NCBI GenBank assembly: GCA_028275925.1 | Contig: JAPWTS010000001.1 | Span: 1 to 64,000, forward strand | DNA from: Thermofilales archaeon | GTDB taxonomy: Archaea > Thermoproteota > Thermoprotei > Thermofilales > Thermofilaceae | Length of the DNA stretch: 64,000 bases | Direction of reading: 5' to 3' | Shown here: positions 5,640 through 62,640 of the stretch, piece by piece | Position numbering within the stretch: position 1 is the first letter of the stretch | How the letters are laid out: each line of letters starts with the position of its first letter | Program-made: the position numbers and the translations under genes | The notes under the pieces: model-generated | The model's database searches: none | Told to the model about the DNA's origin: nothing | What the model saw: the letters and a program-made list of their open reading frames with translations, nothing else

Positions 5640-5913
5640 TCGCCTCTCCCTAGTTGACTAGGGAGAGGCCCCCCTTCATAGCTGCCGCGGCGTCGCCGAC
5701 CGCGGCGCTCCAGAGCGTCACGGGGTCGTCCGCCGCCCCGCTCGGGGGGATCCGAGAGGGCGGCTTCACCCTCCCCTCTTCAGCCCCGCGCGCTGGGCCC
5801 CCTGAGGTACTCGCCGCTCGAGGCGGCTTTCCCCCAGGGGAACGGGCTTCGGAGCGCGCTCTGGCACTCTCATTGCGCTCGCTCCCGCCGCGCTCTCCAC
5901 ACGCGGCACGCTC
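5640..5913 (-). ncRNA. Candidate structured non-coding RNA of the R family (copy R1)
   Basis: The predicted transcript begins ~25 bp after the TATA-like box at 5931-5940, near 5913. It opens with a hairpin, arms GCCGCG and CGCGGC around a loop ending GGAGAG, and continues with GCGCAATGAGAG. Copy R4 begins in the same way (GCCGCG, CAGAGAG, CGCGG, then CACAATGAGG). A near-perfect 13-bp hairpin at 5642-5669 closes the unit. Conserved distance from promoter to hairpin in two diverged copies supports transcription. No match to RNase P or SRP RNA motifs was seen. Function unknown. Confidence 0.45.
5642..5669. terminator. Perfect 13-bp inverted repeat
   Basis: Arms GCCTCTCCCTAGT (5642-5654) and ACTAGGGAGAGGC (5657-5669) are separated by TG. 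It marks the distal end of element R1 and may be the 3' end or a processing site of the R1 RNA; the termination role is an inference. Confidence 0.5.
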
Positions 5914-6052
5914 GAAAGGCGAGCGGGAGGCTTTATAAATTCGACGTTAAGAAGCCCGGAAGTAATCTTTTCTAAACAGAAAGTTAAAGAAAAGAATGGA
6001 GAATACTCTAGCGGCTATAGAGAAGCACGCACGACCGCGCGCGCTGGCTCCG

Positions 6053-7600
6053 CTACTGGAGCGCAAGGAGCGCGCGTATCGGCCAGTAGGCGCCCAAAGC
6101 CCCCCGCGCGACCGCTTTCAACCTCTCACCTTGGTCCGGTTTGCGGATGAATACCACCCTTGCGGCTACCGCGACTCCCGCCGCGGCTGCGAGCGCGAGC
6201 CCTCCGGCTCCGTAACCCTCCCCCGCTGTTCCCCACAAGCTTCTGCCGAAGCTGTACACGAAAAAGAGCCCACTCGGATCCACGAGGAAGCGCGCGTAGC
6301 TCGCAGGCGAGGAAGGGGGGAGCACGTAGTACACGAGCACGCAGAGGAGCGCCACCACCGCAGCGGTTGAAGCGACGAAGGCGGCATCCACATTGGGCCG
6401 AACCCCCCAGGGGAACCGCCAAGCGTAATAGTCGGGTAGAGCCGCTGCCTCCGGCCTCGCAGAGTTCCTAGCCAGAGTGAGCGCCGCCGGGAGTACCAAC
6501 GCAACGACCGAGACGACCATCGCGCGACCGTCATCGGACAAGCTGGACCCCCATACCGCCATCAAAGCTAGGATGGAGGATAGAACCGGGTTCACGACGA
6601 TCGCGGCTAAGCGGGGGTTCAGGCCAAACCACTCTACCGTATAAAACCACGCCAGCCACACTGCGCTCGGCACGAGAGGGTTGGGAGAGAGGAGAGGGGT
6701 TAAGAGACCCCCTTCCGACCGCACCACCGCGAGGAGCGAGAGGAACGAGGTCACGACCGCGACCAACGTCACGTACACAGCCCACTGCGGTCCCGCAAGC
6801 GCCGCAAAGCTCATGAGCAAAAGGAGAATGCCACTCATTACCGCCGCTAGGCTTACGAAGACGCCCCGATACGCTTCGGCCCCACCCGCCGCGTGGAGCA
6901 AGAACGCTGCCACCGCAGTAGCCGTCAGCACGCCGATCTGCACGCCAACCTCGAGGCTGACCACCACCTCTCCGAGAGAGCGCGAGAGCAGTAGCAGGGG
7001 GAGGTGGGCGATTATCGTAGAAGCCGTCGCTAGCGCACTGTGCGCCGTGAGGAGCGCCGCGAAAAGAGAGTAACCTAAACCGAGCCGCGCGTCCGCGAAC
7101 GCCGCCAGAGCCCCGAGGGGGGCTCCCACCGCTAGGTCGAGCAACCCCACTTCTAACGCGGGTGCGACAGACGGGCGCACAGCCTCCAACCCCTTCCACA
7201 GCGGGGATGCTAAGCGCGCGAAGCCGTCCATCAACAGCGCTTGGCCCACAGTTAAAGCCAGGGACGCGAGCAGCAAAGGCGCGAGCGGCGCTTGAGCGCT
7301 GAGCCCTTGCGGCAAGGTTTCAGGGAGCATGTGGAGGAGGCTGGCGGCGGGATCCCCTGTGGCTAAGAGGTACAGCGCTGTAACCGCGCTGCGCAGGCTG
7401 GCGGCGGTGACCGCTGATACGGTGCTGAGGGCTAGCGCCGAAGCCCAGTACTTGCTGCGCGGTTTGAGAAGGGCGCTGCCGACGCTCAGCACCGAGATGA
7501 TGAGCGGTTGGAGCAGCGAGCCTAAGAGCGGGCGACCCGCAAAGAGCCCGATGCCGCTACCGAGCAGCGCTCCAGCCAGCAGGGCTAGCAGGTCCCTCAT
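6053..7600 (-). CDS. Unknown polytopic membrane protein (515 aa)
   Basis: No family is recognised. The protein is very rich in Ala, Leu and Val, with roughly 12-14 hydrophobic segments spread over its whole length and a short basic tail (IRKPDQGERLKA). It looks like an integral membrane protein, perhaps a transporter, but no transport signature was found. A TATA-like GTAAATAAATTGG (about 7630-7642) sits ~30 bp before the ATG. Its 3' end abuts element R1. It stands alone between R1 and the HIT gene. Confidence 0.7.
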   Translation of the reverse strand: MRDLLALLAGALLGSGIGLFAGRPLLGSLLQPLIISVLSVGSALLKPRSKYWASALALSTVSAVTAASLRSAVTALYLLATGDPAASLLHMLPETLPQGLSAQAPLAPLLLASLALTVGQALLMDGFARLASPLWKGLEAVRPSVAPALEVGLLDLAVGAPLGALAAFADARLGLGYSLFAALLTAHSALATASTIIAHLPLLLLSRSLGEVVVSLEVGVQIGVLTATAVAAFLLHAAGGAEAYRGVFVSLAAVMSGILLLLMSFAALAGPQWAVYVTLVAVVTSFLSLLAVVRSEGGLLTPLLSPNPLVPSAVWLAWFYTVEWFGLNPRLAAIVVNPVLSSILALMAVWGSSLSDDGRAMVVSVVALVLPAALTLARNSARPEAAALPDYYAWRFPWGVRPNVDAAFVASTAAVVALLCVLVYYVLPPSSPASYARFLVDPSGLFFVYSFGRSLWGTAGEGYGAGGLALAAAAGVAVAARVVFIRKPDQGERLKAVARGALGAYWPIRALLALQ

Positions 7601-7645
7601 CGGCTGACATCGCAGGCTCTCGCGGTGCCAATTTATTTACCGCGT

Positions 7646-8149
7646 TTACGGACCTTTCAGCACATGCACGTGCTCCATCAGCCTCCTGTACGTGTCCTTC
7701 AGCGCCTCCGGTATCACTTTCGTGTTGGAGATCACAGGCATGAAGTTCGTGTCCCCATTCCACCTAGGCACTATGTGCACGTGAAGGTGCGTCTCCAAAC
7801 CAGCGCCGGCAACCCTCCCCAAGTTCACGCCCACGTTGAACCCGTCGGGCGATAACGCGAGCTTCAGCAGCGCGAGGCTTTTCCGGAGCAGCTCCGCCAG
7901 GCTGAGCAGCTCCTCCCTCGTGAGCTGCGAGAAATCCGCGACGTGGCGCGAGGGGGCTAGCAGCAAGTGCCCTGTGTTGTACGGGAACTTGTTCATGAGG
8001 AGCACTGTAAACGAGTCCTTGTAGAGCACGAGGTGTTCCTCGAGGTTCTCCGCCCTAACGGCGTCGCATATGAAGCACTCGCTGGAGTCCTTGCGCACCT
8101 TAGCGTACTCGATGTACTTCATGCGCCAGGGCGCCCACAGTACGTCCAT
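7646..8149 (-). CDS. HIT-family nucleotide hydrolase/phosphorylase
   Basis: HIT proteins hydrolyse or phosphorolyse nucleotide conjugates such as Ap4A or AMP-X. At 167 aa, the sequence shows the N-terminal LWAPWRMKYIE signature of the archaeal/bacterial branch, the MNKFPYNTGHLLLAPSRH strand (~52-69) and the catalytic triad HLHVHIVPRW (~120-129). The N-terminal C-x2-C pair (ECFICDA) may bind zinc together with other residues. The gene has its own TATA-like box (AAATTATTATC, about 8180-8190). The substrate cannot be told from sequence. Confidence 0.92.
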   Translation of the reverse strand: MDVLWAPWRMKYIEYAKVRKDSSECFICDAVRAENLEEHLVLYKDSFTVLLMNKFPYNTGHLLLAPSRHVADFSQLTREELLSLAELLRKSLALLKLALSPDGFNVGVNLGRVAGAGLETHLHVHIVPRWNGDTNFMPVISNTKVIPEALKDTYRRLMEHVHVLKGP

Positions 8150-8241
8150 CTCGACCCGCCCGCCGGGGGGCTCCTCGATAATAATTTTGCTGCCGCCGAG
8201 CGCTAAGCCTTAAATAGGCGCGAGCGCCAAGCCCGCGCGCT

Positions 8242-8841
8242 ATGGCTCAGAGGTTGACGCGCGAAGCGAGAGGCAAGTGGGAAGCCAAGGTGTGGTTCAG
8301 AGTGCTGGCGCCGAGAGCCTTCGGCTTCGCCGAAGTGGGAGCGATACCCGCGAACGACGCTAAGAGCGTGCTGGGGAGAACCCTGGAGATCAGCTTCTAC
8401 GACATAACGAAGGACATCTCGCAGCTCCCTACGAAGCTCAAGTTCCAGGTGGTGAAGGTTGATGGGAGTACGGCTTACACGCAACTCAAGCTGATCGAGC
8501 TGACCAGGGATTACATCAGGAGCCTCGTGAGGAGGGGTACGTCGAAGGTTGACACGATCGTGGACGTAACGACGGCGGACAACGTGAAGCTGAGGATAAT
8601 GTGCATGGTGGTCACGCAGAGCAGAGTTAAGACGAGCCAGAAGAAGGCCATACGGAAGATAGCCGCCGAGTACATAATTAAAAAAGCTTCGTCCACTAAC
8701 TTTAACGACCTGATCCAAGAGATAGTATTGGGTAAAATGGCATCCGAAATAGAAAGCTTAGTGAAAAAGATATACCCTCCGAGGAAGGTAGAGATAAGGA
8801 AAGTGAAAGTATTGACCAGCCCCTTCGAAATTCCACTATAA
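8242..8841 (+). CDS. rps3ae: Small ribosomal subunit protein eS1 (S3Ae)
   Basis: This small-subunit protein lies near the mRNA exit. At 199 aa, it shows the family pattern WFRVLAPRAFGFAEVG near the N-terminus, SFYDITKDISQLPTKLKF (~47-65) and YIRSLVRRGTSKVD (~90-103). A TATA-like CTTAAATAGG at 8208-8217 puts the transcript start just before the ATG at 8242, so it is probably leaderless. It is divergent from the HIT gene and convergent with the next unknown gene. Confidence 0.96.
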   Translation: MAQRLTREARGKWEAKVWFRVLAPRAFGFAEVGAIPANDAKSVLGRTLEISFYDITKDISQLPTKLKFQVVKVDGSTAYTQLKLIELTRDYIRSLVRRGTSKVDTIVDVTTADNVKLRIMCMVVTQSRVKTSQKKAIRKIAAEYIIKKASSTNFNDLIQEIVLGKMASEIESLVKKIYPPRKVEIRKVKVLTSPFEIPL

Positions 8842-8848
8842 TCGATCT

Positions 8849-9340
8849 TCACGCACCGCTAGAGCTTAAAGCTAGCCGAGCGAGGACGGGCACCACGACT
8901 TCCCTGGCGAGGCGGCGCACACGATCTGGATCTGGGGTCTCGCCGGAGGCGATGAAGCTTAGGGCGAAGTAACCCGCAGCCACGCGCTCCACAAGCAGCG
9001 GCAACACCTCAGTGGATCTGACGGCGATGAAACCTTCCGCCACGAACACGTCGTCGGATACTTTCAGCGCGCCGCGCCCGCTTGGCGCGCTCCTCTCATC
9101 GAAAATCGCGACTACGTACACGGCGGGAGTGCTCAAACCGCGCTTGGCAGCCTGCGCTTCGAGCTCTTCCAGTACCTTTCTGACCCATTCCGTGAGCGTT
9201 TTCTCGCTCTTTAAACGCGCGGAACCCACGCTTTTCGAGGCTGCAGCAACGCCTCTTCTAGCTTCCTCTACGCTCGACCCGCACAGCCTCGGCGGCAAGC
9301 GCCTCGAGCGACAGAGAAGAGTCACCCAACTTGGCAGCAA
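8849..9340 (-). CDS. Unknown protein, overlapping the upstream winged-helix gene
   Basis: No family is recognised. The protein has an Ala/Glu/Arg-rich helical region (~45-75) and a mixed alpha/beta C-terminal half. The frame opens at TTG 9340, giving an 83-base overlap with the upstream gene. Later in-frame starts are GTG 9325 and TTG 9298, and no Shine-Dalgarno site decides between them, so the true N-terminus is uncertain. It probably shares an operon with the winged-helix gene. Confidence 0.5.
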   Translation of the reverse strand: MLPSWVTLLCRSRRLPPRLCGSSVEEARRGVAAASKSVGSARLKSEKTLTEWVRKVLEELEAQAAKRGLSTPAVYVVAIFDERSAPSGRGALKVSDDVFVAEGFIAVRSTEVLPLLVERVAAGYFALSFIASGETPDPDRVRRLAREVVVPVLARLALSSSGA

Positions 9341-9623
9341 GCCAGAGGGGGCTCTCCTTGTTCACCGCGTACTTGACCCCATGGGATGAGCGCGAGATCC
9401 TTCGCACTAAACCTTTCTCGTTGAGCTGCTCTATGACCTCCTTTATCAGCGTTAGGACAACAGGGTGCGTGGGGAGGCCGGCGAGCACCGCTATCTTTTT
9501 CGCGTTAAAAGTAAGCATTGAGCCCTTTGTCGCCCTGATCATCTTGGCGAGCGTCACCAGGACGGTGCGCTGCAACCTTTCGTAGTCCTTGTATATCTCG
9601 GGGCTGAAACGCTGAGACGCCAC
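9258..9623 (-). CDS. Winged-helix DNA-binding protein
   Basis: The 121-aa protein has a plausible helix-turn-helix core, SMLTFNAKKIAVLAGLPTH, a recognition-type helix (VVLTLIKEVIEQLNEKG) and a wing-like LVRRISRSSHGVKYAVN. It resembles crenarchaeal MarR/ArsR-like regulators or chromatin-associated wHTH proteins. Regulator status is inferred from the fold. It precedes and overlaps the unknown gene at 8849-9340. Confidence 0.65.
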   Translation of the reverse strand: MASQRFSPEIYKDYERLQRTVLVTLAKMIRATKGSMLTFNAKKIAVLAGLPTHPVVLTLIKEVIEQLNEKGLVRRISRSSHGVKYAVNKESPLWLAAKLGDSSLSLEALAAEAVRVERRGS

Positions 9624-9778
9624 GTTTACTCGCTTCGCGCCGAGGAATTATGCGGGAGCCGCGCACAACGTAAGAGTATAACCAATGTAGCTTCCCGGTA
9701 CTGCGAGAGTAGCGCGCCGCTCTCTCCTCCCCAACGAAAACTTTAAAAGAGCTCCGAGGCGCATGCCGCGCGTACGGG

Positions 9779-11341
9779 ATGGAAGAGCGGATCTACGTAC
9801 CGGATGTCTCCTGCATCGTGAGCGGTGCCCTACGGAGGGCGATCGAAGAGGGTAAACTCTCCGGGAGAGTAGCCATCCACTCAGCTCTGGTTTCCTACTT
9901 CGAGAGACTCGCGAAGGAGGGGGTTTACAGGGGTTTCGTCGGCTTGAGGGAGCTCGGCAGATTGAGGGATGTTGCTTCGAAGACCCGCGCGATCGAGCTG
10001 GAGTACGTCAAGGATATACCGGAAGGTTACAGGTGGTCCAAAGACGCCAGCGTCGATGAGCTTCTAAGGGAGCTAGCTTACGACGCGGGCGCGGTTCTCG
10101 TAACATCGGACCGGATCAACGCAGATGCAGCGCGCGCGATCGGCGTCGAAGTGATGTTTCTAGAACCCAGCAAAGGAGAGTTTATTCTAAAGAACTTCTT
10201 TACGAGCGAAACCCTCTCGATACACCTGAAGGAGGGGGCGAAACCGTACGCTAAAGTTGGAAGGCCCGGTAGGTGGAAGTTCGTAGCCATTAGGGAGGAG
10301 CCCCTCACTCGAGAGGAGCTCGAGGAGATCGCGAACGAAATAATGGAGTACGCTAAGTCCAACGGTAACTCCTTCATAGAGAGCGAGCGCCCGGGCTCCA
10401 CGATACTGCAGATCGAAAACTTCAGGATAGTAATCACGAGACCCCCGCTCTCGGACGGCATAGAGATCACCGCCGTGCGCCCCATCGTCAGGCTCCAGCT
10501 GGAAGACTACAACCTGCCGCCGAAGCTGCTCCAGCGCCTCGAGAAGCAGGCTGAAGGGATACTCATCGCCGGCGCTCCCGGCATGGGCAAAACAACGTTC
10601 GCCCAAGCGCTCGCTGAGTACTACCGGAGGAAAGGCAAGATCATCAAGACCATCGAATCGCCGAGAGACATGCAGCTACCGCCCGACGTAACCCAGTACT
10701 CTAAGAGCTACGCTACTTCCGAGGAGCTCCACGACGTGCTGCTGCTTTCGAGACCCGACTACACGTTCTTTGACGAGATGAGGGATACGAGGGACTTCGA
10801 GCTCTACGCTGACCTTAGGCTGGCTGGAGTCGGCATGGTGGGTGTGGTCCACGCGACTAGCCCCATCGACGCTATTCAACGGTTCATAGGTAGGGTGGAG
10901 CTCGGGATGATCCCTTCGATCGTGGACACCGTGATATTCATCGAGAACGGCGAAGTCAAGAAAGTTTACGAGCTTGAAACGGTAGTGAAAGTGCCTCACG
11001 GCCTGCGCGAAGCCGAGCTGGCGCGCCCAGTCGTTGTTGTTAGAGACTTCATGACCGGGGAACCCGAGTACGAGCTTTACGTGTTCGGAGAGAGGACGTT
11101 CGTGGTACCCATTAAGAGAGCGGCGCCGATCGGCGAGGAGCGGATCAAAGCGCGCCTCGAAACTCTGCTGCGCAAGTACCTCCCCGACAGCGGCGTCGAA
11201 ATAATCGTAGAGGAGGACAGGGCGGTGGTTCTGGTGGATGAGGAATACTACAATTACGTCGTCGGCAAGCCGCGGCGCAAGCTAGAAAGGCTGGCTCGAC
11301 GCCTAGGGTTTAACGTGGAAATACGCCCCAAGTTCGAGTAG
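9779..11341 (+). CDS. PIN-domain AAA+/VirB11-like ATPase (PINA family)
   Basis: The 520-aa protein has the three-part layout of archaeal PINA. A PIN domain spans 1-140 (VPDVSCIVSG with the first Asp, TSDRINADAARAIG with later acidic residues). A secretion-ATPase-like domain follows, with Walker A GAPGMGKTTFAQ (~264) and Walker B YTFFDEMRD (~327). A KH-like C-terminal domain completes it. In Sulfolobus, PINA promotes Holliday junction migration together with Hjc and Hjm; the same role here is inferred from family membership. A TATA-like CTTTAAAAG (about 9740-9748) lies ~30 bp before the ATG. It is a single gene. Confidence 0.88.
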   Translation: MEERIYVPDVSCIVSGALRRAIEEGKLSGRVAIHSALVSYFERLAKEGVYRGFVGLRELGRLRDVASKTRAIELEYVKDIPEGYRWSKDASVDELLRELAYDAGAVLVTSDRINADAARAIGVEVMFLEPSKGEFILKNFFTSETLSIHLKEGAKPYAKVGRPGRWKFVAIREEPLTREELEEIANEIMEYAKSNGNSFIESERPGSTILQIENFRIVITRPPLSDGIEITAVRPIVRLQLEDYNLPPKLLQRLEKQAEGILIAGAPGMGKTTFAQALAEYYRRKGKIIKTIESPRDMQLPPDVTQYSKSYATSEELHDVLLLSRPDYTFFDEMRDTRDFELYADLRLAGVGMVGVVHATSPIDAIQRFIGRVELGMIPSIVDTVIFIENGEVKKVYELETVVKVPHGLREAELARPVVVVRDFMTGEPEYELYVFGERTFVVPIKRAAPIGEERIKARLETLLRKYLPDSGVEIIVEEDRAVVLVDEEYYNYVVGKPRRKLERLARRLGFNVEIRPKFE

Positions 11342-11577
11342 CGCGCTGGAACTCGCGCACTAGTTGCCAACCCTCCCCAGCAACGCCTGTATCCGCGCGC
11401 TAGCTCTTCTCCGTTTGCGCGCTTTATTAACAGCAGTGCGCCAGCGCGCGTCGTCTATTCTTTGTCGCTCCCCGTTCCTTCGCTTGCCAACCCGTATAAT
11501 CGTAAACCTTTTACCATCATCTCTTTTCACTCCTTTAAGCGTGCGCTAGGGCGAGCCGCATCACGCGCGCTAACTTT

Positions 11578-12177
11578 CTACACTACTGGTGCGCGATCTA
11601 GAACCGCGTGGACGTACGTGATGCAGTGCTCTGTGAAGTAAGGCGTTGGACCTAGGCTCAGCCAGCGGACGCCGAGGTCTTTCAACCACTGCTCTACGCT
11701 GCGCTCCACTCCTTTGTGATCCCCTAGGATGAACGCGGCTGGTTCGCCGAGCTCCACCTGCGAAATATCTACGCCGTGCTCGTGCATGTAGAAGATTCGC
11801 GTGGGACCCAGCGAGGATAGCAGGCGCAGGACCAGCCGCTTAAAGTCGCATTCCACGATGCTCGCGCCGGGAACGCTCATCCCGCGCGCTAGCGCGCGCA
11901 GAACTTCGCCCACTTGAGCTTCGCTGGCGAGCGCGCGTCCCGGCACCTCCCACCCCCTGAACTCCACCGTAACGGGCTTCGTCGATCCCTCTAGTACAGC
12001 GTAGAACACCGTGTCGGGCCTTGGACCGCGCCTCGTCGAGAGGGCTGCGATCGCAGCGCGCGCCACCACATCGAGCCGCCCGTACGATGCCAAAGCTTTA
12101 ATGTTCAGATCCGGCTTCACGAACGCGGAAGAAGCTTTAACGACGAACACTCTGGAAAGTCCGGAATAACTTCTCAT
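11578..12177 (-). CDS. trmY: tRNA pseudouridine-54 N1-methyltransferase TrmY
   Basis: TrmY makes N1-methylpseudouridine at position 54 of archaeal tRNA using SAM. The 199-aa sequence has the SPOUT C-terminal knot, FILGDHKGVE (~150-159), WLSLGPTPYFTEHCI (~174-188) and a C-terminal HAVLD, as in the DUF358/TrmY family. It lies just downstream of eS26 on the same strand, 85 bp apart. The 236-bp region beyond its stop (11342-11577) holds no gene that could be supported. Confidence 0.92.
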   Translation of the reverse strand: MRSYSGLSRVFVVKASSAFVKPDLNIKALASYGRLDVVARAAIAALSTRRGPRPDTVFYAVLEGSTKPVTVEFRGWEVPGRALASEAQVGEVLRALARGMSVPGASIVECDFKRLVLRLLSSLGPTRIFYMHEHGVDISQVELGEPAAFILGDHKGVERSVEQWLKDLGVRWLSLGPTPYFTEHCITYVHAVLDRAPVV

Positions 12178-12262
12178 CTGCGCGAAGCGCAGGCCAAAAC
12201 GCTATCTAGCGACACCCTCCGGCAACGAAAAGCCTCGGTGCCGCGCACGGCGCCACAGGCGT

Positions 12263-30400: not shown

Positions 30401-30423
30401 CGCTCGCGCGCCCGCATCCCCGC

Positions 30424-30700
30424 CCCTCCTGAGGGGGCGCTCCCGCCTCGTGGCAGGATCCTCCTCGCCCGCCTCGCGGCGGGTTCACCCGTCACGGCTC
30501 GGCCCGCGCGCAGGGCCCTTCAGGGGACGGGCTGCGATGGCGGAACCCCACCCCCATCGGGAACAGGGCTTGTGCCAGCGAGCCCTTTAAAAATTTGATG
30601 TTGAGAAGACTGGAAATTATTTTTCTAACCGAAAAGTTAAAGAAATGAACGAAGAATATGCAAGCATGCTATAGAGAATGCATCAGCAGCTATAGGGAAG
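30424..30700 (-). repeat. Dispersed element R2
   Basis: This is the second R-family element, in the same orientation as R1. The AT-rich block (about 30700-30585) carries the shared core (on the plus strand CTAACCGAAAAGTTAAAGAA) and ends in a TATA-like ATTTTTAAAGGG on the minus strand. The GC-rich block (30555-30424) matches R3 without gaps over ~130 bp with about five mismatches. Compared with R1, the ~60 nt after the promoter seem to be missing, joining the box to the middle of the unit. On the minus strand the block folds into several hairpins (CGATGG/CCATCG, GGCCC/GGGCC, CCGCC/GGCGG, CGCCCC/GGGGCG). It lies between taw3 and rpoN. Confidence 0.75.
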
Positions 30701-30816
30701 GCGCCGGCGGAGCTAGGCTGCGAAATTGCGAAAAAAGCACGCGCCCCTCCGCTCTCCCTGTAGTCGCGCGCTAGGGGGTGGGGAAGCCTTAAAAGCGCGC
30801 AGGGGGCAGGCGCTTT

Positions 30817-45916: not shown

Positions 45917-46003
45917 GAGCGCGGGTAGCGGGACGGGCTACTTAAACGCGCCGCCAAAACCGGCGATTGTCGGCGTGCTCAAGAACCTCAGGACGCGCGC
46001 CGA

Positions 46004-46345
46004 CCCTCCTGAGGGGGCGCTCCCGCCTCGTGGCAGGATCCTCCTCGCCCGCCTCGCGGCGGGTTCACCCGCCACGGCTCGGCCCGCGCGCAGGGCCCTT
46101 CAGGGGGCGAGCCGCGATGGCGGAACCCCACCCCCTCGGGAATCGAGCTGGGAAACGGCGCTCACCGGGCAAGGGATCACGAGCTTGGGAACCCAAGGCT
46201 CCGGCTCCCTTATCGCGTCCGATAATGCTGTGCCGTTTCCGGCGCGGTGCCAGGTCTAAGGGCGAACCTGAGTTTACAAATTCAATGTCAAAAGTCTTTA
46301 AAATAACATCCTTAACAAAAAGTCAAACAAAAACGATAAAGAGCA
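46004..46345 (-). repeat. Dispersed element R3
   Basis: This is the third R-family element, in the same orientation as R1 and R2. The AT-rich block (about 46345-46272, plus-strand TTTACAAATTCAATGTC onward) is the most diverged of the four. A ~125-bp stretch (46147-46271), not seen in R2, separates it from the GC-rich block 46004-46136. That block matches R2 30424-30556 at a constant offset of 15,580 bp with about five differences. It fills the ~500-bp gap between aIF2-beta and TFS. Frames across it translate to low-complexity Arg/Pro/Gly and are not credible genes. Confidence 0.72.
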
Positions 46346-55712: not shown

Positions 55713-55718
55713 TCCCCG

Positions 55719-56090: not shown

Positions 56091-56166
56091 GCGGTAGCTG
56101 CGCGCACTCCCCGATAAAAAGCTCTCGCGCCCAAGCCCGAAACCCAGCGGCTTCCAGAGCCTCGAG

Positions 56167-57021
56167 TCACGCCGCAGCAGCGAAAGCCAGCGTTCCCGTG
56201 AACATGGCGAGGAGCGTCGTTCGCCTCCCCTTCTCCGCCGTGGCTTTATCGCTGCGCAGGAGGAGGGTTGCGCTCACGTAGGCGAAGAGCGCGTCCGTCA
56301 CGGAAACCAACGCCGTGTAAGCTAGGAGCGCGCTCTCCTTGACGAGCGCCAGAGCGGCGACGCTGAGGGAGACGGCCGCCAGCAGCAGCGCGCTGGATAG
56401 CTTCGCCGCGTACGCGACGCCCTTCGTCGCGGCCACCGTGCGGACCCCCGCCCTAAGGTCCCCCTCTAAGTCGACGATCCCCTTCAGAACCTCCCTCCCT
56501 AGCGCCGCGAGGAAAGCCGTTAGAGTGAACAGGTAAGCTAGCAGCGGGATCCTCACCCCGCTCGCGACGGCCGCCCCGAAGAGGAAGGGCAGCGCGGTGT
56601 CCAGCGCCACCACCGCGTTGCCGGGGAAACCGGACTTCTTCAAGCGCGCGTTGTAAGCCATCCCGGTCAACACCGCGAGCGCCGCTATCAGGAAAGGCGC
56701 GGGGCCCAGCGCGGCAGCGAGAGCGCCGCCCAGCGCCAGGGAAAAGGCTCCGAGAGCGATCGCCTCCCTCAAGCTGACCTCGCCTTTTACAAGAGGCCTA
56801 TCGGGCGCGTTGACCCTGTCCTCTTCTAGGTTGAAGACGTCGTTGAACACGAAAAGCCCGACCTCGACCGCAACGGTGACGGCAGCCGCAAGCGCTAAGC
56901 GGTACATCTCCACGCTGAACCAGCCGCCGGCGCCCACCGCGCAGCCAACCGCTGTGGCGAAAGCCGCCATCACACCGTGCTCGATCCTCGCCAACCGGAG
57001 AAAGGCGCCGAGCTTCCCCAC
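56167..57021 (-). CDS. Digeranylgeranylglyceryl phosphate synthase (UbiA family)
   Basis: This membrane prenyltransferase adds the second geranylgeranyl chain in archaeal ether-lipid synthesis. The 284 aa have ~8-9 membrane segments and both Asp-rich sites: FNDVFNLEEDRVNAPDRPLV (~61-80) and LKGIVDLEGDLRAGVRTVA (~182-200). The start GTG 57021 is chosen because a TATA-like CTTTTATTG (about 57042-57050) lies ~25 bp before it. The longer frame would run through the tRNA gene. UbiA relatives with other prenyl acceptors are possible, but the archaeal lipid enzyme fits best. Mevalonate kinase is 2 kb away. Confidence 0.88.
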   Translation of the reverse strand: MGKLGAFLRLARIEHGVMAAFATAVGCAVGAGGWFSVEMYRLALAAAVTVAVEVGLFVFNDVFNLEEDRVNAPDRPLVKGEVSLREAIALGAFSLALGGALAAALGPAPFLIAALAVLTGMAYNARLKKSGFPGNAVVALDTALPFLFGAAVASGVRIPLLAYLFTLTAFLAALGREVLKGIVDLEGDLRAGVRTVAATKGVAYAAKLSSALLLAAVSLSVAALALVKESALLAYTALVSVTDALFAYVSATLLLRSDKATAEKGRRTTLLAMFTGTLAFAAAA

Positions 57022-57085
57022 GCGAAAGCCCGCGCGCGGGAACAATAAAAGCGCTGCGCAAATAGCGCGTTGCGCAGGAGCGTGG

Positions 57086-57215
57086 TGGGCCCGCCGGGAT
57101 TCGAACCCGGGACCTCGGTGGGGGCGAATCCCCCTCTCCCGCGCTCCCAGCCACGTAGCGCCTGTAAGGCTTGCGCCCCCCGCGGGTGGGCGCCCCACCG
57201 CTAGGCTACGGGCCG
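57086..57215 (-). tRNA. tRNA-Pro(GGG), probably with two introns and a C1-C72 mismatch
   Basis: The 3' half is clear: T-arm CCGGG-TTCGAAT-CCCGG, acceptor CGGGCCC, discriminator A and encoded CCA (57083-57085). The D-arm TAGCCTAGCGG is near the 5' end. The only loop with U33 and a good context is CTGGGAG, giving anticodon GGG (Pro) with stem GTGG/CCAC. That requires a canonical 37/38 intron of ~22 nt and another of ~35 nt in the 5' half before the anticodon stem. Position 1 is C, facing C72. A 12-base sequence (plus-strand GCTTGCGCCCCC) occurs both in the first intron and just before the gene. The identity rests on this reconstruction. Confidence 0.68.
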
Positions 57216-57233
57216 GTCGCTTGCGCCCCCGCC

Positions 57234-57272
57234 GGGGTTAAAAGTTTTGCTAGGGGAGGGGCGGGCTTCCCG
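57234..57272 (-). promoter_or_regulatory. tRNA-Pro promoter with shared upstream element
   Basis: On the plus strand GGGGTTAAAAGTTTTGCT is followed by GGGGAGGGGCGGGCTTCCC and GC. The TATA-like box on the minus strand (ACTTTTAACCCC) lies ~25 bp before the tRNA 5' end. Nearly the same ~40 bp precede tRNA-Gly at 60154-60195. Confidence 0.6.
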
Positions 57273-57609
57273 CGGGCTCGAGCAGCCTCCTTGTCACGGG
57301 TCCACCCCACCTCGGCTCTATCTTTCTCTTCTCGGCGAGCTCCCTCAGGGTGCTCCTCCACTCGAGAGAGTTCGGCGAGCTTCAGCACCGCGCGCGAGAG
57401 CCCTCCTCGACCTCTCCAGCAGCTCGTCGAGCATAGTTTGCACCGCGTCTGTGGTACCGCTTGCCCTCGGGCCCCGCCCCCCAGCCCTCGGGGGCTGGGG
57501 TGTGGCGCGCCGAGAGATTACAGCCCGCGATCGACGCGTGGAGCCCCAAGTCGCCATTCGCTTGAGCAGAAGAAAACAGTTTTTGGGCAGGCTTGCGCGC
57601 TCCTCCGCG
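57241..57609. other. Gene-poor stretch upstream of the GNAT gene
   Basis: Besides the tRNA-Pro promoter it holds a strong 9-bp hairpin (57479-57500, CCCCAGCCC and GGGCTGGGG around TCGG). On the minus strand there are short protein-like fragments in different frames (for example TMLDELLERSRRA, VLKLAELSRVEEH and STLRELAEKRKIEPRWGG). These may be a decayed gene. No intact gene is supported. Confidence 0.35.
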
Positions 57610-57903
57610 ATGGAGGTCGTCCACGAGCCTGAGCGGAGTAGGTTCGCTGTTCACCTGGCGCCCGGAGCCTACGCTTTCCTCAGGTACGAGATCCGAGGGA
57701 AGACGGTGTACATCAAGACCGTGTACACTCCACCCGAATTCAGGGGGAGGGGGGTGGCGACCCGCTTGATGGAGACCGCGCTCAAGTGGGTCGAGGAGAA
57801 TGGCTACAAGGTTGTCCCCGTGTGCAGCTTCGCGGCGAGCTTCTTCGAGAAGCACCCTGAGTGGCGCCGCCTGCTCGACGAGAGCGCGCTAGCGGAAGCT
57901 TAG
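57610..57903 (+). CDS. GNAT-like N-acetyltransferase (COG2388/YidJ type)
   Basis: This is a compact GNAT of 97 aa: FAVHLAPGAYAFLRYEIRGK, the acyl-CoA-binding TPPEFRGRGVATRLMETAL (~44-62) and GYKVVPVCSFAASFFEKHPE, the C-terminal signature of the small YidJ-like branch. The ATG at 57610 is the family start; long in-frame sequence upstream is Arg/Pro/Ser-rich and not coding. The substrate is unknown. Its end overlaps the convergent 2H phosphoesterase gene by 15 bases. Confidence 0.87.
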   Translation: MEVVHEPERSRFAVHLAPGAYAFLRYEIRGKTVYIKTVYTPPEFRGRGVATRLMETALKWVEENGYKVVPVCSFAASFFEKHPEWRRLLDESALAEA

Positions 57904-58404
57904 CCCGAGCACGGGCCTCACGCGGCCCGCTTCAGCCTCCATGAGGAGGAGCTCGCGGAGCTCTACGGTCTCGCTCACCGATCTGCTGGCTCTCACAGCC
58001 CGCGAAACGCTCCTGTACAGCTCGAGCGACGGTTTCAGCCTAGTGAAGGCGATGGAAACATGGGGCTTGAAGTCGCTGTACCTGTCGCGGTGCGCGCCGA
58101 GAGCTCTTAAGACCTCGGTTCGCAAGCGCTGGAGGGCGCCAACGCCCTCCGCGGTGGGCACCGCCGCCAGGTAGCGCGCCCTGCTCCTCGAGGGGAAGGC
58201 CTCGAGCCCCTTGAACGTCACCGTAAGCGGCCGGAGCGGGGGCAGCAACTCGAGCCTCTCGCGGAGCTCGCCGGCGCGCACGCGGTCGCCCAAGTACACG
58301 AGCGTGAGGTGCCTCTGCTCCGGCGGTATCGGGGTGAAACCCGGGGGAACGAACCTGTCGAACGCCCTGAGCGGAGCGAGGAAACCGACGAAGTACGTTG
58401 TCAC
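57889..58404 (-). CDS. thpR: RNA 2',3'-cyclic phosphodiesterase, 2H (LigT/ThpR) family
   Basis: It opens 2',3'-cyclic phosphates on RNA ends, possibly tRNA half-molecules from intron splicing. The 171 aa show both catalytic H-x-T/S motifs, EQRHLTLVYLGDR (~29-41) and FKPHVSIAFTRLK (~111-123). It starts 4 bases inside the upstream unknown gene, so the two are probably cotranscribed. Confidence 0.9.
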   Translation of the reverse strand: MTTYFVGFLAPLRAFDRFVPPGFTPIPPEQRHLTLVYLGDRVRAGELRERLELLPPLRPLTVTFKGLEAFPSRSRARYLAAVPTAEGVGALQRLRTEVLRALGAHRDRYSDFKPHVSIAFTRLKPSLELYRSVSRAVRASRSVSETVELRELLLMEAEAGRVRPVLGLSFR

Positions 58405-59000
58405 CGAATCACCAAGGGGAGCAGCCTCTCTTTGACCAGCTCGATCAGCTCTTCATCCGTCAGCTTGGAGTATGCCACCACGGAGAGGCGGTCGCTGACG
58501 CCGAGCAGAACCCCGCTCTCGTCCTCGAACACTGCGTACTTCACCTCGCTGAGCTGCGTGAGCTCCCTGTAAACGTCGGTGTCCGAGACCGCGTCCCCCG
58601 TGAGCATCACCCTCCTCAACCCGGGCACCCTCACCATGCCGAAGACCACCAGCTTCACAACGCGCCCCTCGCAGAGCCCGCTGATCCTGCGAGATGGCAC
58701 CTCGACCTCGCGCGCGTCGAGCCCCGCCGCCTCGGCTACCCCCGCTGCCACTCTGCGGGCGAGCTTTTTGCCGGCCGCCACGATCAGGTAGAGCTTCCCC
58801 TTGAAGCTGAACACCTCGAACACCACCGCGCGCCCGGCGAGCTCCGCAACGCCCCTCAGGCTCAGGCCGCCGCTCTCCGTCAAAGTAAGCTTAGCGCCGG
58901 CCGCCTCCGCGCCGGGCTTCAAGGCCTCGCGCAGCAGGGGCAGCTTGTCGGCCTCCCCCAGCTCGTAAACCTTGCAAGCGCTCGGCATCTCCTGCTCCAC
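58401..59000 (-). CDS. Unknown conserved-looking protein
   Basis: The 199-aa protein is not recognised. It has an alternating beta/alpha pattern: AVVFEVFSFKGKLYLIVAAG, VVKLVVFGMVRVPGLRRVML and YAVFEDESGVLLGVSDRLSV are strand-rich, and it ends in a helix (DEELIELVKERLLPL). It overlaps thpR by 4 bases and is divergent from mevalonate kinase. Confidence 0.6.
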   Translation of the reverse strand: MEQEMPSACKVYELGEADKLPLLREALKPGAEAAGAKLTLTESGGLSLRGVAELAGRAVVFEVFSFKGKLYLIVAAGKKLARRVAAGVAEAAGLDAREVEVPSRRISGLCEGRVVKLVVFGMVRVPGLRRVMLTGDAVSDTDVYRELTQLSEVKYAVFEDESGVLLGVSDRLSVVAYSKLTDEELIELVKERLLPLVIR

Positions 59001-59078
59001 CTTCGATACGCGCTAAATAAACGCATCCGTCGAAAAGCGCGCCAGCAAGGCTTAAGCTCCACCCTTCTCGAAACCCCC

Positions 59079-60035
59079 GTGAAAGCTTCCGCCAGCGCGC
59101 CGGGCAAGGTGATACTGGTCGGCGAGCACTTCGTCGTGGAGGGGAGCCCTGCTATCGCGGTCGCCGTGGACGTGAGAGCCCGCGCGACCGCCGAAGCGGC
59201 GGAGGGGGATCTCGTGACGATCTCTTCGCGCGAGCTGGGCGAAGCCTCGTTCGGACCCGGCGCCGGCGGGGGGCCGCTGTACCCGGTTTACGTGGCGGTC
59301 CAGGAGATCTTCAAGCGCGCCGGCCGGCGGGCGGGGCTCAGGCTAACAATCGAGTCCGACATACCCCCCGGCGCCGGCATGGGTTCCTCGGCCGCCGTGG
59401 CGGCGGCGGCTGCGGCGGCAACCGCCAGGCTACTCGGCCTGCCGCTGTCCCCCGATGAGATCGCGCAAGCCGCTCTAGCGGCCGAAACGATCGTCCACGG
59501 GAAGCCCAGCGGTATCGACCCCGCTGTGACATCGTACGGGGGCGCGATATACTTCAAGAGAGGCGCGAAGCCCGAGAGGATAAGCGCCGACTTCGGGCGC
59601 GTGCGCCTCGTACTCGCCGACAGCGGGATCCAGCGGTCGACGGGGGCGCTCGTCGCCAGAGTCCTCGAGACCAAGAGGAGGCACCCCGAGGTCCTCGAGC
59701 CGCTTTACAAGGCAGCGGCCAACCTGGCGGAGAAGGCGAGGAGCGCGCTCGAGAGGGGGGACTTCGCGACCGTGGGCGAGCTCATGAACATAAACCACGG
59801 GATGCTCAGCGCCCTAGGAGTCTCGAACGCGAAGCTCGAGGAGCTAGTGTACGCCGCGAGAGAAGCCGGGGCCCTAGGCGCGAAGATCACGGGGGCCGGG
59901 GGAGGGGGGATGATCGTGGCGCTCTGCTGGAGTGAGGACGCGGAGCGCGTAGCCCGAGCGCTGAGCGGCATCGCAGCGCGCACCATAGTAGCCCCAGTAA
60001 GCGAGAAGGGCGCGACCTCCACCCTAGAAGGCTAG
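59079..60035 (+). CDS. mvk: Mevalonate kinase
   Basis: This GHMP kinase of isoprenoid synthesis feeds archaeal lipids. The 318 aa have ASAPGKVILVGEHFVVEGSP (~4-23), the ATP loop PPGAGMGSSAAVAAA (~99-113), GKPSGIDPAVTSYGGAIYF with the catalytic Asp (~142-160) and KITGAGGGGMIVAL near the C-terminus. The GTG at 59079 starts the family sequence. A TATA-like GCTTAAGC (about 59050-59057) predicts a leaderless transcript. The very long in-frame extension upstream is noncoding shadow of the opposite gene. Confidence 0.94.
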   Translation: MKASASAPGKVILVGEHFVVEGSPAIAVAVDVRARATAEAAEGDLVTISSRELGEASFGPGAGGGPLYPVYVAVQEIFKRAGRRAGLRLTIESDIPPGAGMGSSAAVAAAAAAATARLLGLPLSPDEIAQAALAAETIVHGKPSGIDPAVTSYGGAIYFKRGAKPERISADFGRVRLVLADSGIQRSTGALVARVLETKRRHPEVLEPLYKAAANLAEKARSALERGDFATVGELMNINHGMLSALGVSNAKLEELVYAAREAGALGAKITGAGGGGMIVALCWSEDAERVARALSGIAARTIVAPVSEKGATSTLEG

Positions 60036-60040
60036 CGTGG

Positions 60041-60134
<94 letters not shown>

Positions 60135-60153
60135 CGAGGTGAGGGGTCAAAGG

Positions 60154-60195
60154 GGGGTTAAAGGTTTTGCTGTGCAGGGAGGGGCGGGCTTCTCG
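60154..60195 (-). promoter_or_regulatory. tRNA-Gly promoter with element shared with tRNA-Pro
   Basis: Plus-strand GGGGGTTAAAGGTTTTGCT, then GGGAGGGGCGGGCTTCTCGC, closely matches 57234-57272. The TATA-like box lies ~25 bp before the tRNA 5' end, so the precursor has almost no leader. Confidence 0.55.
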
Positions 60196-60266
60196 CAAGC
60201 TTTAGTCAGCCGCGCGGTAACCGCCCAGCGGGGTAACCGCTTGACGAGGGGGTGCTCGGGAGGTGG

Positions 60267-60399
60267 TGCCGGGGCCGGGATTTGAACCCGGGTTAACCGG
60301 ATTTTAGGCCCGCCGGGCATCCTATCCCCGGGCCGGACGATTATGAGTTTCGCCCGCAGCGCGCGTCCGGCGCCCTCGACCAGGCTAGGCGACCCCGGC
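60267..60399 (-). tRNA. tRNA-Met(CAT), elongator type, with two introns
   Basis: Removal of 18 nt just before U33 (or 31/32) and 39 nt at the canonical 37/38 site gives a perfect 76-nt tRNA: acceptor GCCGGGG/CCCCGGC, D-stem GCCT/GGGC, anticodon stem CCGGA/TCCGG with loop CTCATAA, and T-arm CCGGG/CCCGG. Discriminator A and CCA (60264-60266) are encoded. The acceptor differs from archaeal initiator tRNAs; elongator Met is likely, and Ile2 (CAT read as AUA) cannot be excluded. The TATA-like GGGTTTAAAGGG lies about 60420-60431. Confidence 0.92.
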
Positions 60400-60589
60400 T
60401 CGGCCGTAAAGCGGGTTGCCCCCTTTAAACCCTTCGCTGCGCGGCGTCGCTCAGCCGCGCGGATGGTGGGGTCGGTTTAACTAGGTTCAATCACGTGCTC
60501 ATCTGACCCTCTTCTCTTCATCCCTCGCGATCCTGCGAGCCAGTGCAATTAAGCTTTCACCGCGCGGCCGCTCCGCGCGCTTCGGCCAG

Positions 60590-61807
60590 CTAGAGCTCGA
60601 CTCGCGCCACTTGCGAGAGCACTTTCTCGCGGAGCTTCTGGGGCGGCTCAGGCTCCGCCTTCAGAACCCCTTTCTCCATGACCTTCTCCAGGAGCGGTTG
60701 CATGGGCTTGCCGCACTTCGGGCAGCTGGGCCGCGGCTCTCCCGCCAGCGTCACCAGGTCTGTGAGGCAGTCCCAGCACCGGTAGACCTGCTTCCGCCCG
60801 CTCAGCTTCCCCCTTTTGGCGATGGGTTTCCACTCGCCGTCCACCTTCACGGCTACGATGTCCATCGCGTAGTCGATGAAGGGCGCGTTGGCTATCGCCG
60901 ACCCCACGCCGAACACGTCGGCGCCGGCTTCGGCGAGCTTTGGTATAGTGTATTCGTCGAGCCCGCCTGAGACTACGATTCGCACGCCTCTAAAGCCGGC
61001 CGCCTCGAGCTTCCACTTGACCTCCCTGACGATCGCCGCCATGTCGCCCCTCCTGCTGCCGGGGGTGTCCAGCCTGACCCCCCACAGCTTGCTCCCGAGG
61101 AGCTTTGCCGCGGCCATCGACTCCTCCACTTCGTCCCAGAAGGTGTCAGCGAGCACTACGCGCGGGATCCCGGGCTCCACGTGCTTGTCGAAAGCCAGCC
61201 AAGCCAGCGTGTGGTCCCCTTTGACAGCCCTGAAGACGATCATGAGGCTGTGGGGCATGGTGCCGGAGGGGGTTATGCCGAGCAGCTCAGCTCCCTTGAC
61301 GCACGACACGCCGTCGCAGCCGCCGACGTACGCGTAGTAGTCCACGAAGGGGGCTATGGCGGGGTGGGTTCGGCGCGCGCCGAAGGACAGGACGAGCTTG
61401 TTGCCCGCGGCTTTTTTGACGCGCGCGGCCTTCGTGGCCACCCCGGACGCGGCGGCTAGGAAGCCTAGGAGCGCGGTCTCGTAGAGCGCGAACTCGCCGT
61501 ACGGGCCTTCGATCGCCATCACGGGTATCCTGTAGCCCCTCGCGTCGTTCTGGCGCACCAGCGTTCCTTCGGGCAGCGAGTAGACGTCGACGCCCTTGCC
61601 CTCCAGCAGCTTGAGAACCTCCCTCAAGCCGGCGTACACAGCCCAGCCGTAGCCGCTGGGGAGCGCGCTGATCGTGATTTCAGCGTGAACTTCAACGCGA
61701 TCGAGCCCCTCGCCTTTCAGCACCTTCAGCGTCCGCTCGAAGTACACGTCCGTGGTTCTCGCGCCCCTCACGTCTTCCGGCGTCGCCCACAGGAAGGGCT
61801 CTTCCAT
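60590..61807 (-). CDS. Nicotinate phosphoribosyltransferase
   Basis: It makes nicotinate mononucleotide for NAD salvage. The 405 aa show TTDVYFERTLKVLKGEGLD, the SFGARRTHPAIAPFVD substrate region (~141-156), RLDTPGSRRGD (~245) and the phosphate-binding VSGGLDEYTIPKLAEAGADV and FGVGSAIANAPF. A C-terminal zinc-ribbon-like CWDCLTDLV...CPKCGKPM (~345-370) is typical of archaeal forms. The 190 bp before the tRNA-Met promoter (60413-60589) hold no supported gene. Confidence 0.92.
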   Translation of the reverse strand: MEEPFLWATPEDVRGARTTDVYFERTLKVLKGEGLDRVEVHAEITISALPSGYGWAVYAGLREVLKLLEGKGVDVYSLPEGTLVRQNDARGYRIPVMAIEGPYGEFALYETALLGFLAAASGVATKAARVKKAAGNKLVLSFGARRTHPAIAPFVDYYAYVGGCDGVSCVKGAELLGITPSGTMPHSLMIVFRAVKGDHTLAWLAFDKHVEPGIPRVVLADTFWDEVEESMAAAKLLGSKLWGVRLDTPGSRRGDMAAIVREVKWKLEAAGFRGVRIVVSGGLDEYTIPKLAEAGADVFGVGSAIANAPFIDYAMDIVAVKVDGEWKPIAKRGKLSGRKQVYRCWDCLTDLVTLAGEPRPSCPKCGKPMQPLLEKVMEKGVLKAEPEPPQKLREKVLSQVARVEL

Positions 61808-61854
61808 CGTCGCGCCTCACGGACGAGGATTCTTGGGTTTTTCGCGCTGCTCGA

Positions 61855-62136
61855 TCAAGTGGCACCCGGCGAATCGAACCCCGCGCCGGCCGCGCGCGTT
61901 CCGCGGAGGAAGCTTTGGTTCAGGTAGAGCAGCACCCTCCTACCGTTCCGCTCCTCCCTGACCAACCCCAGGCGCTGGAGTATGAGCAGGTGCCCCGAGA
62001 GGGTGCCCGCTCCCACCCCAAGCTCGCGCGCGAGCTGCCTGATGCTAATCCCTGGGTTCTCCATCAGTATCAGCACGATCCTCCTCCTGATCGGGTTGCT
62101 GAGCGCTTCTCTAACGCTCAGTATCTTGCTCGGCAC
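61855..62136 (-). CDS. ArsR-like winged-helix transcription regulator
   Basis: The 93-aa protein is nearly all winged helix: LSNPIRRRIVLILMENPGIS, IRQLARELGVGAGTLSGHLL (recognition helix) and GLVREERNGRRVLLYLN (wing). No metal-binding cysteines are present. A TATA-like GATATATGG (about 62158-62166) predicts a leaderless GTG start. It is adjacent to element R4, which is transcribed away from it. Confidence 0.8.
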   Translation of the reverse strand: MPSKILSVREALSNPIRRRIVLILMENPGISIRQLARELGVGAGTLSGHLLILQRLGLVREERNGRRVLLYLNQSFLRGTRAAGAGFDSPGAT

Positions 62137-62239
62137 CGGGGGAGCGCGCGCACGCGCGCCATATATCCTTTACGCGCTAACGCGCCTCTTCTTCAGCTTA
62201 AAGTTTTAGCGCTGGCACGTGGTTATTCTCTTTCCGCGT

Positions 62240-62640
62240 TCTCTGCCATCTCCACATCCTTCGTCTGCCTAGTTCTGCAAGGGTATTCTCTGTAGCTGAG
62301 AATATTCTTTATCTTTTCTCTAACTTTCTGGTTCAAAAAATTTTCTTTCGGTCTACTCTGGGAAAAGATTTTAAAAGCCCCCTGCCTTACTTTTCAGCCC
62401 GTGCCGCGCAGAGAGCGCGGTAAGAGCGCACACAATGAGGGGCTGGGGCGGCCCTCGAGCTCGGTACTCGCTGGCGAGTTGGCGGGGAGACGCTCAGCGC
62501 GCCGCCCCGCTGCCCGTGCACCCCCGTGGGCCCGCCGGAGCAGTGATAGGCGGGCCAGAGGGGGCAGAAGAGCGCGGGCCTACCCGCGCGGGCGCGCGCA
62601 CCGGGAGAGGCTTCCAGAACCTTGCTAAAAACCTTTTGTA
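62240..62640 (+). repeat. Dispersed element R4, inverted relative to R1-R3
   Basis: This is the fourth R-family element, on the plus strand. The AT-rich block (about 62240-62376) has the shared TTTTCTCTAACTTTCTGGTT core, repeated TATTCTC-like words and a TATA-like GATTTTAAAAGCC (62368-62380). Its reverse complement aligns with R1 along ~75 bp. The GC-rich block then runs to a CCTTTT stretch near 62632. It lies in a 566-bp gap between the ArsR-like gene and tfe; no credible frame was found. Confidence 0.75.
62397..62640 (+). ncRNA. Candidate structured non-coding RNA of the R family (copy R4)
   Basis: The predicted start (~25 bp after TTTTAAAA at 62369-62376) opens with GCCCGTGCCGCG, and a CCGCG-CAGAGAG-CGCGG hairpin, then CACAATGAGG, as in R1. 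Further hairpins include GAGGGGC/GCCCTC-type pairing and GGGCCCGCC/GGCGGGCC. The unit ends in CTTGCTAAAAACCTTTTG near 62640, a possible terminator. No match to RNase P or SRP motifs was seen. Confidence 0.45.

What the first reader, a model, noticed from the sequence alone, without database searches (positions are those of the whole stretch)
5640..62640. Four-member family of dispersed, promoter-bearing, GC-rich non-coding elements (R1-R4)
Intergenic gaps at 5.64-6.04, 30.42-30.70, 46.00-46.35 and 62.24-62.64 kb contain related units. Each has an AT-rich block ending in a TATA-like box, then a GC-rich block full of hairpins. R4 is inverted and still keeps the order AT-block, TATA, GC-block, so the unit is oriented. 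In R1 and R4 the predicted transcript starts with the same hairpin followed by a CAATGAG word at the same distance from the box. No open frame of protein-like composition runs through them. Two diverged copies keeping promoter-to-hairpin spacing is what a paralogous RNA gene family would show. I know of no named archaeal RNA that matches.
Basis: partly seen in the sequence, partly recalled or inferred. Interest (0 to 1): 0.85.

Follow-up and report, generated by a model that had tools for sequence, protein, structure and literature searches.

The report
Nuclease-less guide-RNA mobile elements
The four repeats are shortened copies of mobile DNA elements that normally encode a CRISPR-like nuclease (TnpB); they have lost the nuclease gene but kept its promoter and its guide-RNA segment, and they outnumber the nuclease-encoding copies among those examined, so this archaeal genome may hold many guide RNAs that depend on nucleases made elsewhere.

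Summary
R1-R4 belong to a family of at least 43 leader-bearing copies in one 1.95-Mb archaeal draft genome (window = contig C32). In 17 copies the same leader, TATA box and 5'UTR drive a TnpB gene of one of three diverged groups. In 20 copies, including R1-R4, the gene is gone, leaving leader plus the RNA block that lies directly 3' of the tnpB stop codon in the full elements: the omegaRNA/right end. R1, R2/R3 and R4 carry three different omegaRNA types, each found behind its own TnpB type. The 'CAATGAG word' is the tnpB start codon. Right ends are sharp, have the subterminal hairpin typical of TnpB omegaRNAs, and are followed by unique DNA (the would-be guide). R2 and R3 are absent at orthologous sites of related genomes. 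No Y1 or serine transposase was found. Best reading: tnpB-less (PATE/MITE-like) derivatives of TnpB elements that can express an omegaRNA from their own promoter, probably for TnpB acting in trans. The anatomy is well supported; expression and trans use are inferred. New variant of a known kind.

The parts
5623..6036 (-). R1: tnpB-less element, omegaRNA of the group IIb TnpB type
   Evidence: 3' block about 82% identical to the block behind TnpB genes L107 and L109; sharp 3' end at GATGTGGGTGCGCGCGC
5623..5846 (-). R1 omegaRNA/right-end block with a long perfect subterminal hairpin (GCCTCTCCCTAG..CTAGGGAGAGGC)
   Evidence: homology to L107/L109 blocks 3' of the tnpB stop
5871..5873 (-). R1 relic tnpB start codon (ATG of the 'CAATGAG word')
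   Evidence: aligned with the GTG/ATG starts of intact tnpB copies
5932..5939 (-). R1 TATA box TTTATAAA
   Evidence: same position in nearly all copies
30405..30740 (-). R2: tnpB-less element, omegaRNA of the group IIa TnpB type; TATA lies directly in front of the omegaRNA
   Evidence: R2 block 84-85% identical to the blocks behind TnpB in L106 and L108; site empty in G001 and G007
30405..30572 (-). R2 omegaRNA/right-end block
30586..30593 (-). R2 TATA box TTTTTAAA
45994..46345 (-). R3: tnpB-less element of the R2 type with a decayed leader, between genes that look like aIF2-beta and TFS
   Evidence: 96% identical to R2 over the omegaRNA; site empty in G001, G002, G003
45994..46144 (-). R3 omegaRNA block (3' tip damaged)
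62222..62599 (+). R4: tnpB-less element, omegaRNA of the group III TnpB type (type A), with a further deletion of roughly 85 nt inside the omegaRNA
   Evidence: (3' 80 nt mostly 83-98% identical to other copies); covariance-model hit 62511-62599 E=8.9e-16
62369..62376 (+). R4 TATA box TTTTAAAA
62435..62437 (+). R4 relic tnpB start codon (ATG of the 'CAATGAG word')
62475..62599 (+). R4 omegaRNA/right-end block, subterminal hairpin CGCGGG-CCTA-CCCGCG, terminus GGGCGCGCGC
62600..62619 (+). R4 predicted guide: about 16-20 nt of unique flank directly 3' of the right end
   Evidence: inference from the sharp boundary and the TnpB paradigm (PMC8612924)

Best explanation
R1-R4 are internally deleted, tnpB-less derivatives of IS200/IS605-superfamily (IS1341-like, TnpB-only) elements. 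Each keeps (1) the element's left end, which doubles as the tnpB promoter (repeated TTCTCTAT boxes, AT-rich block, TATA), (2) in R1, R4 and most others a structured 5'UTR and the tnpB start codon, and (3) the right end, which is the omegaRNA scaffold. Transcription from the retained promoter would run through the omegaRNA into the flanking DNA; the first 16-20 nt of flank would be the guide. Intact TnpB proteins encoded by other copies in the same genome (17 leader-bearing copies in three groups) would bind these omegaRNAs in trans and cut chromosome copies that lack the insertion, so that the short elements keep themselves in place using nucleases made by full-length ones. Shown by sequence: the anatomy, the TnpB link, the matching TnpB/omegaRNA types, the sharp right ends and two lineage-specific insertions. 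Inferred: transcription, processing, trans use and retention function. Unknown: which enzyme moves them.
For: Same leader, TATA and 5'UTR in front of TnpB genes and of tnpB-less copies: census of 43 copies = 17 TnpB-encoding (8 group I, 5 group II, 4 group III), 20 tnpB-less with an omegaRNA block (15 type A, 4 R2-type, 1 R1-type), 3 other, 3 cut by contig ends. 3' blocks of R1, R2/R3 and R4 each lie directly behind the stop codon of a different TnpB type. TnpB identity: PF01385 and PF07282; the group III model (pLDDT 73) matches Cas12f/TnpB structures (Foldseek E 9e-10 to 2e-7, incl. TnpB 8iaz and 8h1j); D..E..D positions largely conserved in the 10-sequence group III alignment. The omegaRNA core is conserved behind the about 30% identical TnpBs of another genus, genomes G012 and G015. 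Right boundary: identity falls from 0.85 to 0.40 at the end, flanks about 0.34. Subterminal hairpin within about 10 nt of the scaffold end, the one consistently conserved feature of TnpB omegaRNAs (PMC10278001). RNA structure: 98.3% of cells paired, 12 two-sided changes versus 4.6 in shuffles. GCGCG near the left boundary in 22/43 copies versus 8% background, matching the GCGCGC right terminus. R2 and R3 sites empty in relatives. TnpB and its RNA supplied from separate plasmids form an active complex (PMC8612924), so trans use is possible.
Against: No expression data. R3's TATA and 3' tip are decayed and R4's omegaRNA lacks about 85 nt found in most copies, so some copies may be dead. Covariation within the genome is modest (3 pairs with two-sided changes, within the shuffled range for that measure). 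No Y1 TnpA or serine recombinase was found, so how tnpB-less copies spread is unexplained; the genome is a 95%-complete draft. TAM and guide were not tested. tnpB-less copies could be inert relics.
Confidence: 0.8

Rival explanations
1. Inert PATE/MITE-like relics: the short copies spread (or arose by repeated deletion) purely as substrates of a transposase; promoter and omegaRNA are retained only because they are the left and right ends needed in cis for movement. No RNA function.
For: PATEs in haloarchaea arise from IS605-type elements by core deletion (PMC3119063). Left and right ends are what such a MITE must keep. Some copies are decayed (R3, R4).
Against: More is kept than ends: about 215 nt of structured omegaRNA, with identity 0.82-0.99 over several internal segments, against 0.72-0.77 in the 5'UTR, and the TATA box is kept in nearly all copies. 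In three R2-type copies (R2, L002, L004) the promoter sits directly in front of the omegaRNA.
Confidence: 0.3
2. An independent family of regulatory RNA genes, unrelated to mobile elements.
For: Conserved promoter-to-hairpin spacing and structure.
Against: Same leader and same 3' blocks flank tnpB genes; the CAATGAG word is a start codon; right ends are sharp and two insertions are lineage-specific.
Confidence: 0.03
3. Host-exapted guide RNAs: some tnpB-less copies have been fixed as RNA-guided regulators or defence guides used with TnpB.
For: High conservation of omegaRNA segments; an orphan omegaRNA in genome G016 lies with a TATA-like AT block directly upstream of a gene for an HTH-type regulator.
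Against: R3 is absent from all three same-genus genomes and R2 from the relatives where the site could be read, so no long-term vertical conservation; no guide with a second target is known.
Confidence: 0.08

Closest known systems
TnpB-omegaRNA (reRNA) of IS200/IS605 elements, e.g. ISDra2 (PMC8612924, PMC10278001)
   Same: RNA scaffold at the right end of a TnpB element, subterminal hairpin close to the 3' end, unique flank as guide, TnpB-type proteins in the same genome
   Different: Here the omegaRNA is found without tnpB, directly behind the element's own promoter, in more copies than the TnpB genes examined; the terminus and left-flank motif are GCGCGC-like, unlike the TTGAT TAM of ISDra2; divergent TnpB groups II and III
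PATEs of haloarchaea (palindrome-associated transposable elements; PMC3119063)
   Same: tnpB-less derivatives of IS605-type elements made by core deletion, no long terminal inverted repeats, palindromes near both ends, more numerous than intact elements
   Different: Some PATEs were described as fused termini, down to 52 bp; here promoter, 5'UTR and a complete omegaRNA are retained in most copies, and three omegaRNA types share one left end
Stand-alone IscB omegaRNAs / HEARO RNA (RF02033)
   Same: orphan copies of an OMEGA guide RNA away from the nuclease gene (from general knowledge; the source paper could not be read)
   Different: IscB omegaRNA lies 5' of the gene (PMC9755519) and has its own Rfam family; no such family reached its gathering threshold here
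IS1341-type (TnpB-only) elements of archaea
   Same: TnpB without TnpA, many diverged copies (as in Natronomonas, PMC3119063)
   Different: here accompanied by an abundant tnpB-less class with the same promoter

Membership tests
IS200/IS605-superfamily TnpB elements (IS1341-type) | full-length relatives encode TnpB with RuvC and zinc-ribbon domains | tested here: met
   PF01385/PF07282 hits, Foldseek Cas12f/TnpB, largely conserved D/E/D
IS200/IS605 proper (or IS607) | Y1 TnpA (or IS607 serine TnpA) as mobilising enzyme | tested here: not met
   no PF01797 and no PF00239 in the own draft genome; no PF01797 in 19 of 20 relatives including the one-contig genomes G009 and G012. IS1341-type elements lack it by definition, so this bars 'IS605 proper', not 'IS1341-type'
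IS200/IS605-superfamily TnpB elements (IS1341-type) | subterminal palindromes at both ends | tested here: met
   left GCTCC-GCT-GGAGC in many copies, lost in left-truncated ones; right-end hairpins in all three groups
IS200/IS605-superfamily TnpB elements (IS1341-type) | fixed short target motif left of the element, related to the right terminus | tested here: inconclusive
   GCGCG near the left boundary in 22/43 copies vs 8% background; right terminus GCGCGC; left boundary is variable
TnpB omegaRNA | lies at the 3' end of tnpB and ends at the right end, with a hairpin within about 10 nt of the scaffold end | tested here: met
   also behind the TnpBs of G012 and G015
TnpB omegaRNA | co-purifies with TnpB and guides cleavage next to a TAM | not testable with these tools
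   needs biochemistry
PATE (core-deleted IS605-type element) | shares both ends with a TnpB element, no coding core | tested here: met
PATE (core-deleted IS605-type element) | mobile as a unit | tested here: inconclusive
   type-A copies share one derived hairpin-containing junction in place of tnpB, seen in most of them; R2 and R3 sites empty in relatives; no transposition seen
Independent paralogous RNA gene family | no relation to transposon ends | tested here: not met

The most novel reading that the evidence does not exclude
The genome runs a dispersed guide-RNA repertoire: a score or more of tnpB-less, independently promoted omegaRNAs of three types load the matching TnpB type in trans, so that TnpBs act as shared nucleases for many guides (a CRISPR-like many-guides-per-nuclease arrangement built from mobile elements without arrays), possibly with some guides exapted for regulation or defence.
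Probability: 0.3. Interest if true: 0.78.

Novelty: new variant of a known kind. Interest (0 to 1): 0.52.

Why it matters
It links a family of 'mystery' archaeal non-coding repeats to TnpB, the ancestor of Cas12, and gives a natural system with several TnpB types and matching tnpB-less omegaRNA units in one genome, suited to ask whether omegaRNAs work in trans, how nuclease-less elements persist, and how TnpB elements spread in genomes without a detectable TnpA. The divergent groups II and III are TnpB relatives with an unusual GC-only flanking motif.

Tried and rejected
Rfam scan: only a tRNA reached gathering score. Leader search in 40 relatives: none outside the own genome; exact pattern scan of GTDB contigs gave 4 single-match contigs from unrelated organisms, not followed up and judged chance matches. 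Searched for mobilising enzymes: none found in the own genome (relatives). The 423-bp insert at the R2 site of G003 is not one of these elements: only a weak match outside the elements. RNAalifold covariation on the own-genome copies alone is weak because copies are too alike. A curated cross-genus structure was not built because the central stem is not alignable between genera. Whether the R1 and R4 sites are empty in relatives could not be decided: the flanking matches there are missing or not adjacent.
Full report
OBSERVATION. R2 and R3 share a near-identical GC block; R1 and R4 have other GC blocks; all four share the AT-rich leader and TATA (R3 decayed). Searching the own genome (1.95 Mb, 142 contigs, 95% complete) with R2 and R4 gave 41 and 61 places with E-values down to 1e-66 beyond the self-hits. 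43 distinct leader-bearing copies were read out of the fetched loci; further places were not fetched, so 43 is a lower bound.

WHAT FOLLOWS THE LEADER. In 17 of the 43 copies the leader, TATA and about 66-nt 5'UTR region lead into a gene starting, in most, GTG/ATG AGG... These genes are TnpB: group I has OrfB_IS605 and Cas12f1-like_TNB domains over the cut-offs; group II has the TNB zinc ribbon over the cut-off; group III has it below the cut-off in the member scanned. For group III a model from a 10-sequence alignment (pLDDT 73) matched Cas12f and TnpB cryo-EM structures (E 9e-10 for OsCas12f, 2.7e-8 for ISFba1 TnpB, 2e-7 for the TnpB-omegaRNA complex 8h1j). The CAATGAG word of R1 and R4 is the tnpB start codon region, at the same 66-nt offset from the TATA box.

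THE 3' BLOCKS. In the intact elements the DNA from just after the tnpB stop codon to the right end is homologous to the GC blocks of the short copies: the R1 block behind L107 and L109, the R2/R3 block behind L106 and L108, the R4 (type A) block behind L111-L116. So three TnpB types (IIb, IIa, III) have matching RNA blocks, and tnpB-less copies exist for each: 15 type A, 4 R2-type, 1 R1-type. In R2 and two sister copies (L002, L004) the deletion puts the TATA box directly in front of the RNA block. Most type-A short copies share a derived hairpin-containing junction in place of tnpB, which suggests that they spread as short units (inference).

ELEMENT ENDS. For 12 type-A short copies identity falls from 0.85 to 0.40 at the right end and flanks are at about 0.34. 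Right ends are GGGCGCGCGC, GGGATGYGGGNGCGCGCGC or CTGGATGGCGCGCGC in the groups, each shortly behind a hairpin. A subterminal hairpin within 10 nt of the scaffold end is the only feature found consistently in TnpB omegaRNAs (PMC10278001), and the guide is the flank directly 3' of it (PMC8612924). The left end is less sharp: copies begin at different places among repeated TTCTCTAT boxes, and 22 of 43 have GCGCG or CGCGC within 14 nt of the aligned start against 8% of random stretches. GCGCGCGC itself is over-represented in the window (25 vs 10 expected).

RNA STRUCTURE AND OUTSIDE EVIDENCE. On 18 type-A blocks the consensus fold has 98.3% of cells paired (slid controls 38-57%) and 12 two-sided changes against 4.6 in shuffles, but only 3 pairs carry them, which is within the shuffled range. 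A covariance model of the 3' 96 positions found 25 places in the own genome, none in three same-genus genomes, one strong match in another genus (G016, E 4.8e-12) and a weak one in G015. Genomes G012 and G015 of that genus hold about 30% identical TnpBs, and five loci inspected carry, behind the ORF, the same core (CCCCCGTG ... GGCCAGCAGGGGGCAGAAAAGGAGG with small differences). This is independent support that the block belongs to TnpB.

INSERTIONS. Joined flanks searched in relatives show the R3 site empty in all three same-genus genomes (59-135 bp between matches versus 451-517 here) and the R2 site empty in G001 and G007 (79-87 bp versus about 450 here). R2 and R3 are therefore lineage-specific. 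R1 and R4 sites could not be decided.

MOBILITY. No Y1 TnpA or serine recombinase was found in the own genome, and no Y1 TnpA in 19 of 20 relatives, including one-contig genomes, one of which (G012) has 11 TnpB matches. What moves these elements is open.

MECHANISM. Shown: promoter-like left end, TnpB start, omegaRNA right end, unique flank. Inferred: transcripts of the tnpB-less copies are omegaRNAs with a guide from the flank, loaded into TnpB made by other copies, protecting the short insertion from loss by cutting the empty allele. I put the anatomy and origin at about 0.95, and trans-active omegaRNA at about 0.6. The main rival is that the short copies are inert PATE-like relics as in Haloquadratum (PMC3119063).

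NOVELTY. TnpB omegaRNAs and core-deleted IS605-type elements are both known; retention of the complete promoter-plus-omegaRNA unit in parallel for three TnpB types, outnumbering the TnpB genes examined, is the new variant. The papers opened here did not describe it, but the literature search was limited to an open-access library.

Noticed in passing
L015 (G000:C107 about 1-1014, minus strand): The same leader, 5'UTR and start codons drive an ORF with a TFIIB-type zinc ribbon (PF08271, weak) that looks like a divergent TFB paralogue, while two regular TFBs lie elsewhere. Possible promoter capture or element-borne TFB.
   Followed up: partly
L020 and L078 (G000:C55 and C107): Two copies of a fourth, long (roughly 0.85-0.95 kb) apparently non-coding element with the same leader, 69% identical over 977 columns, without a recognised omegaRNA block.
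   Followed up: partly
L122 (G016:C11:25382-25482, minus): Orphan type-A omegaRNA in another genus, preceded by a TATA-like AT block and directly upstream of a gene for an HTH-type regulator.
   Followed up: partly
L123 (G015:C1:133894-134002): A short omegaRNA-like insertion without tnpB in or next to what looks like an M20-peptidase gene.
   Followed up: no
Genomes G012, G014, G015 (genus g7): Many TnpB copies of group III or related type (11, 6 and 25 matches); in G012, a one-contig genome, no Y1 TnpA was found.
   Followed up: partly
window, 25 sites: GCGCGCGC occurs 25 times against 10 expected from shuffles; it is the element terminus and apparent target motif.
   Followed up: partly
window 60041-60134 (-): tRNA gene of 94 bases by Rfam, long enough to hold an intron.
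   Followed up: no
full-length group I TnpB elements (L092, L095-L099, L101, L102): Eight group I TnpB genes share the leader; no tnpB-less derivative with a group I right end was seen, although groups II and III have many.
   Followed up: no
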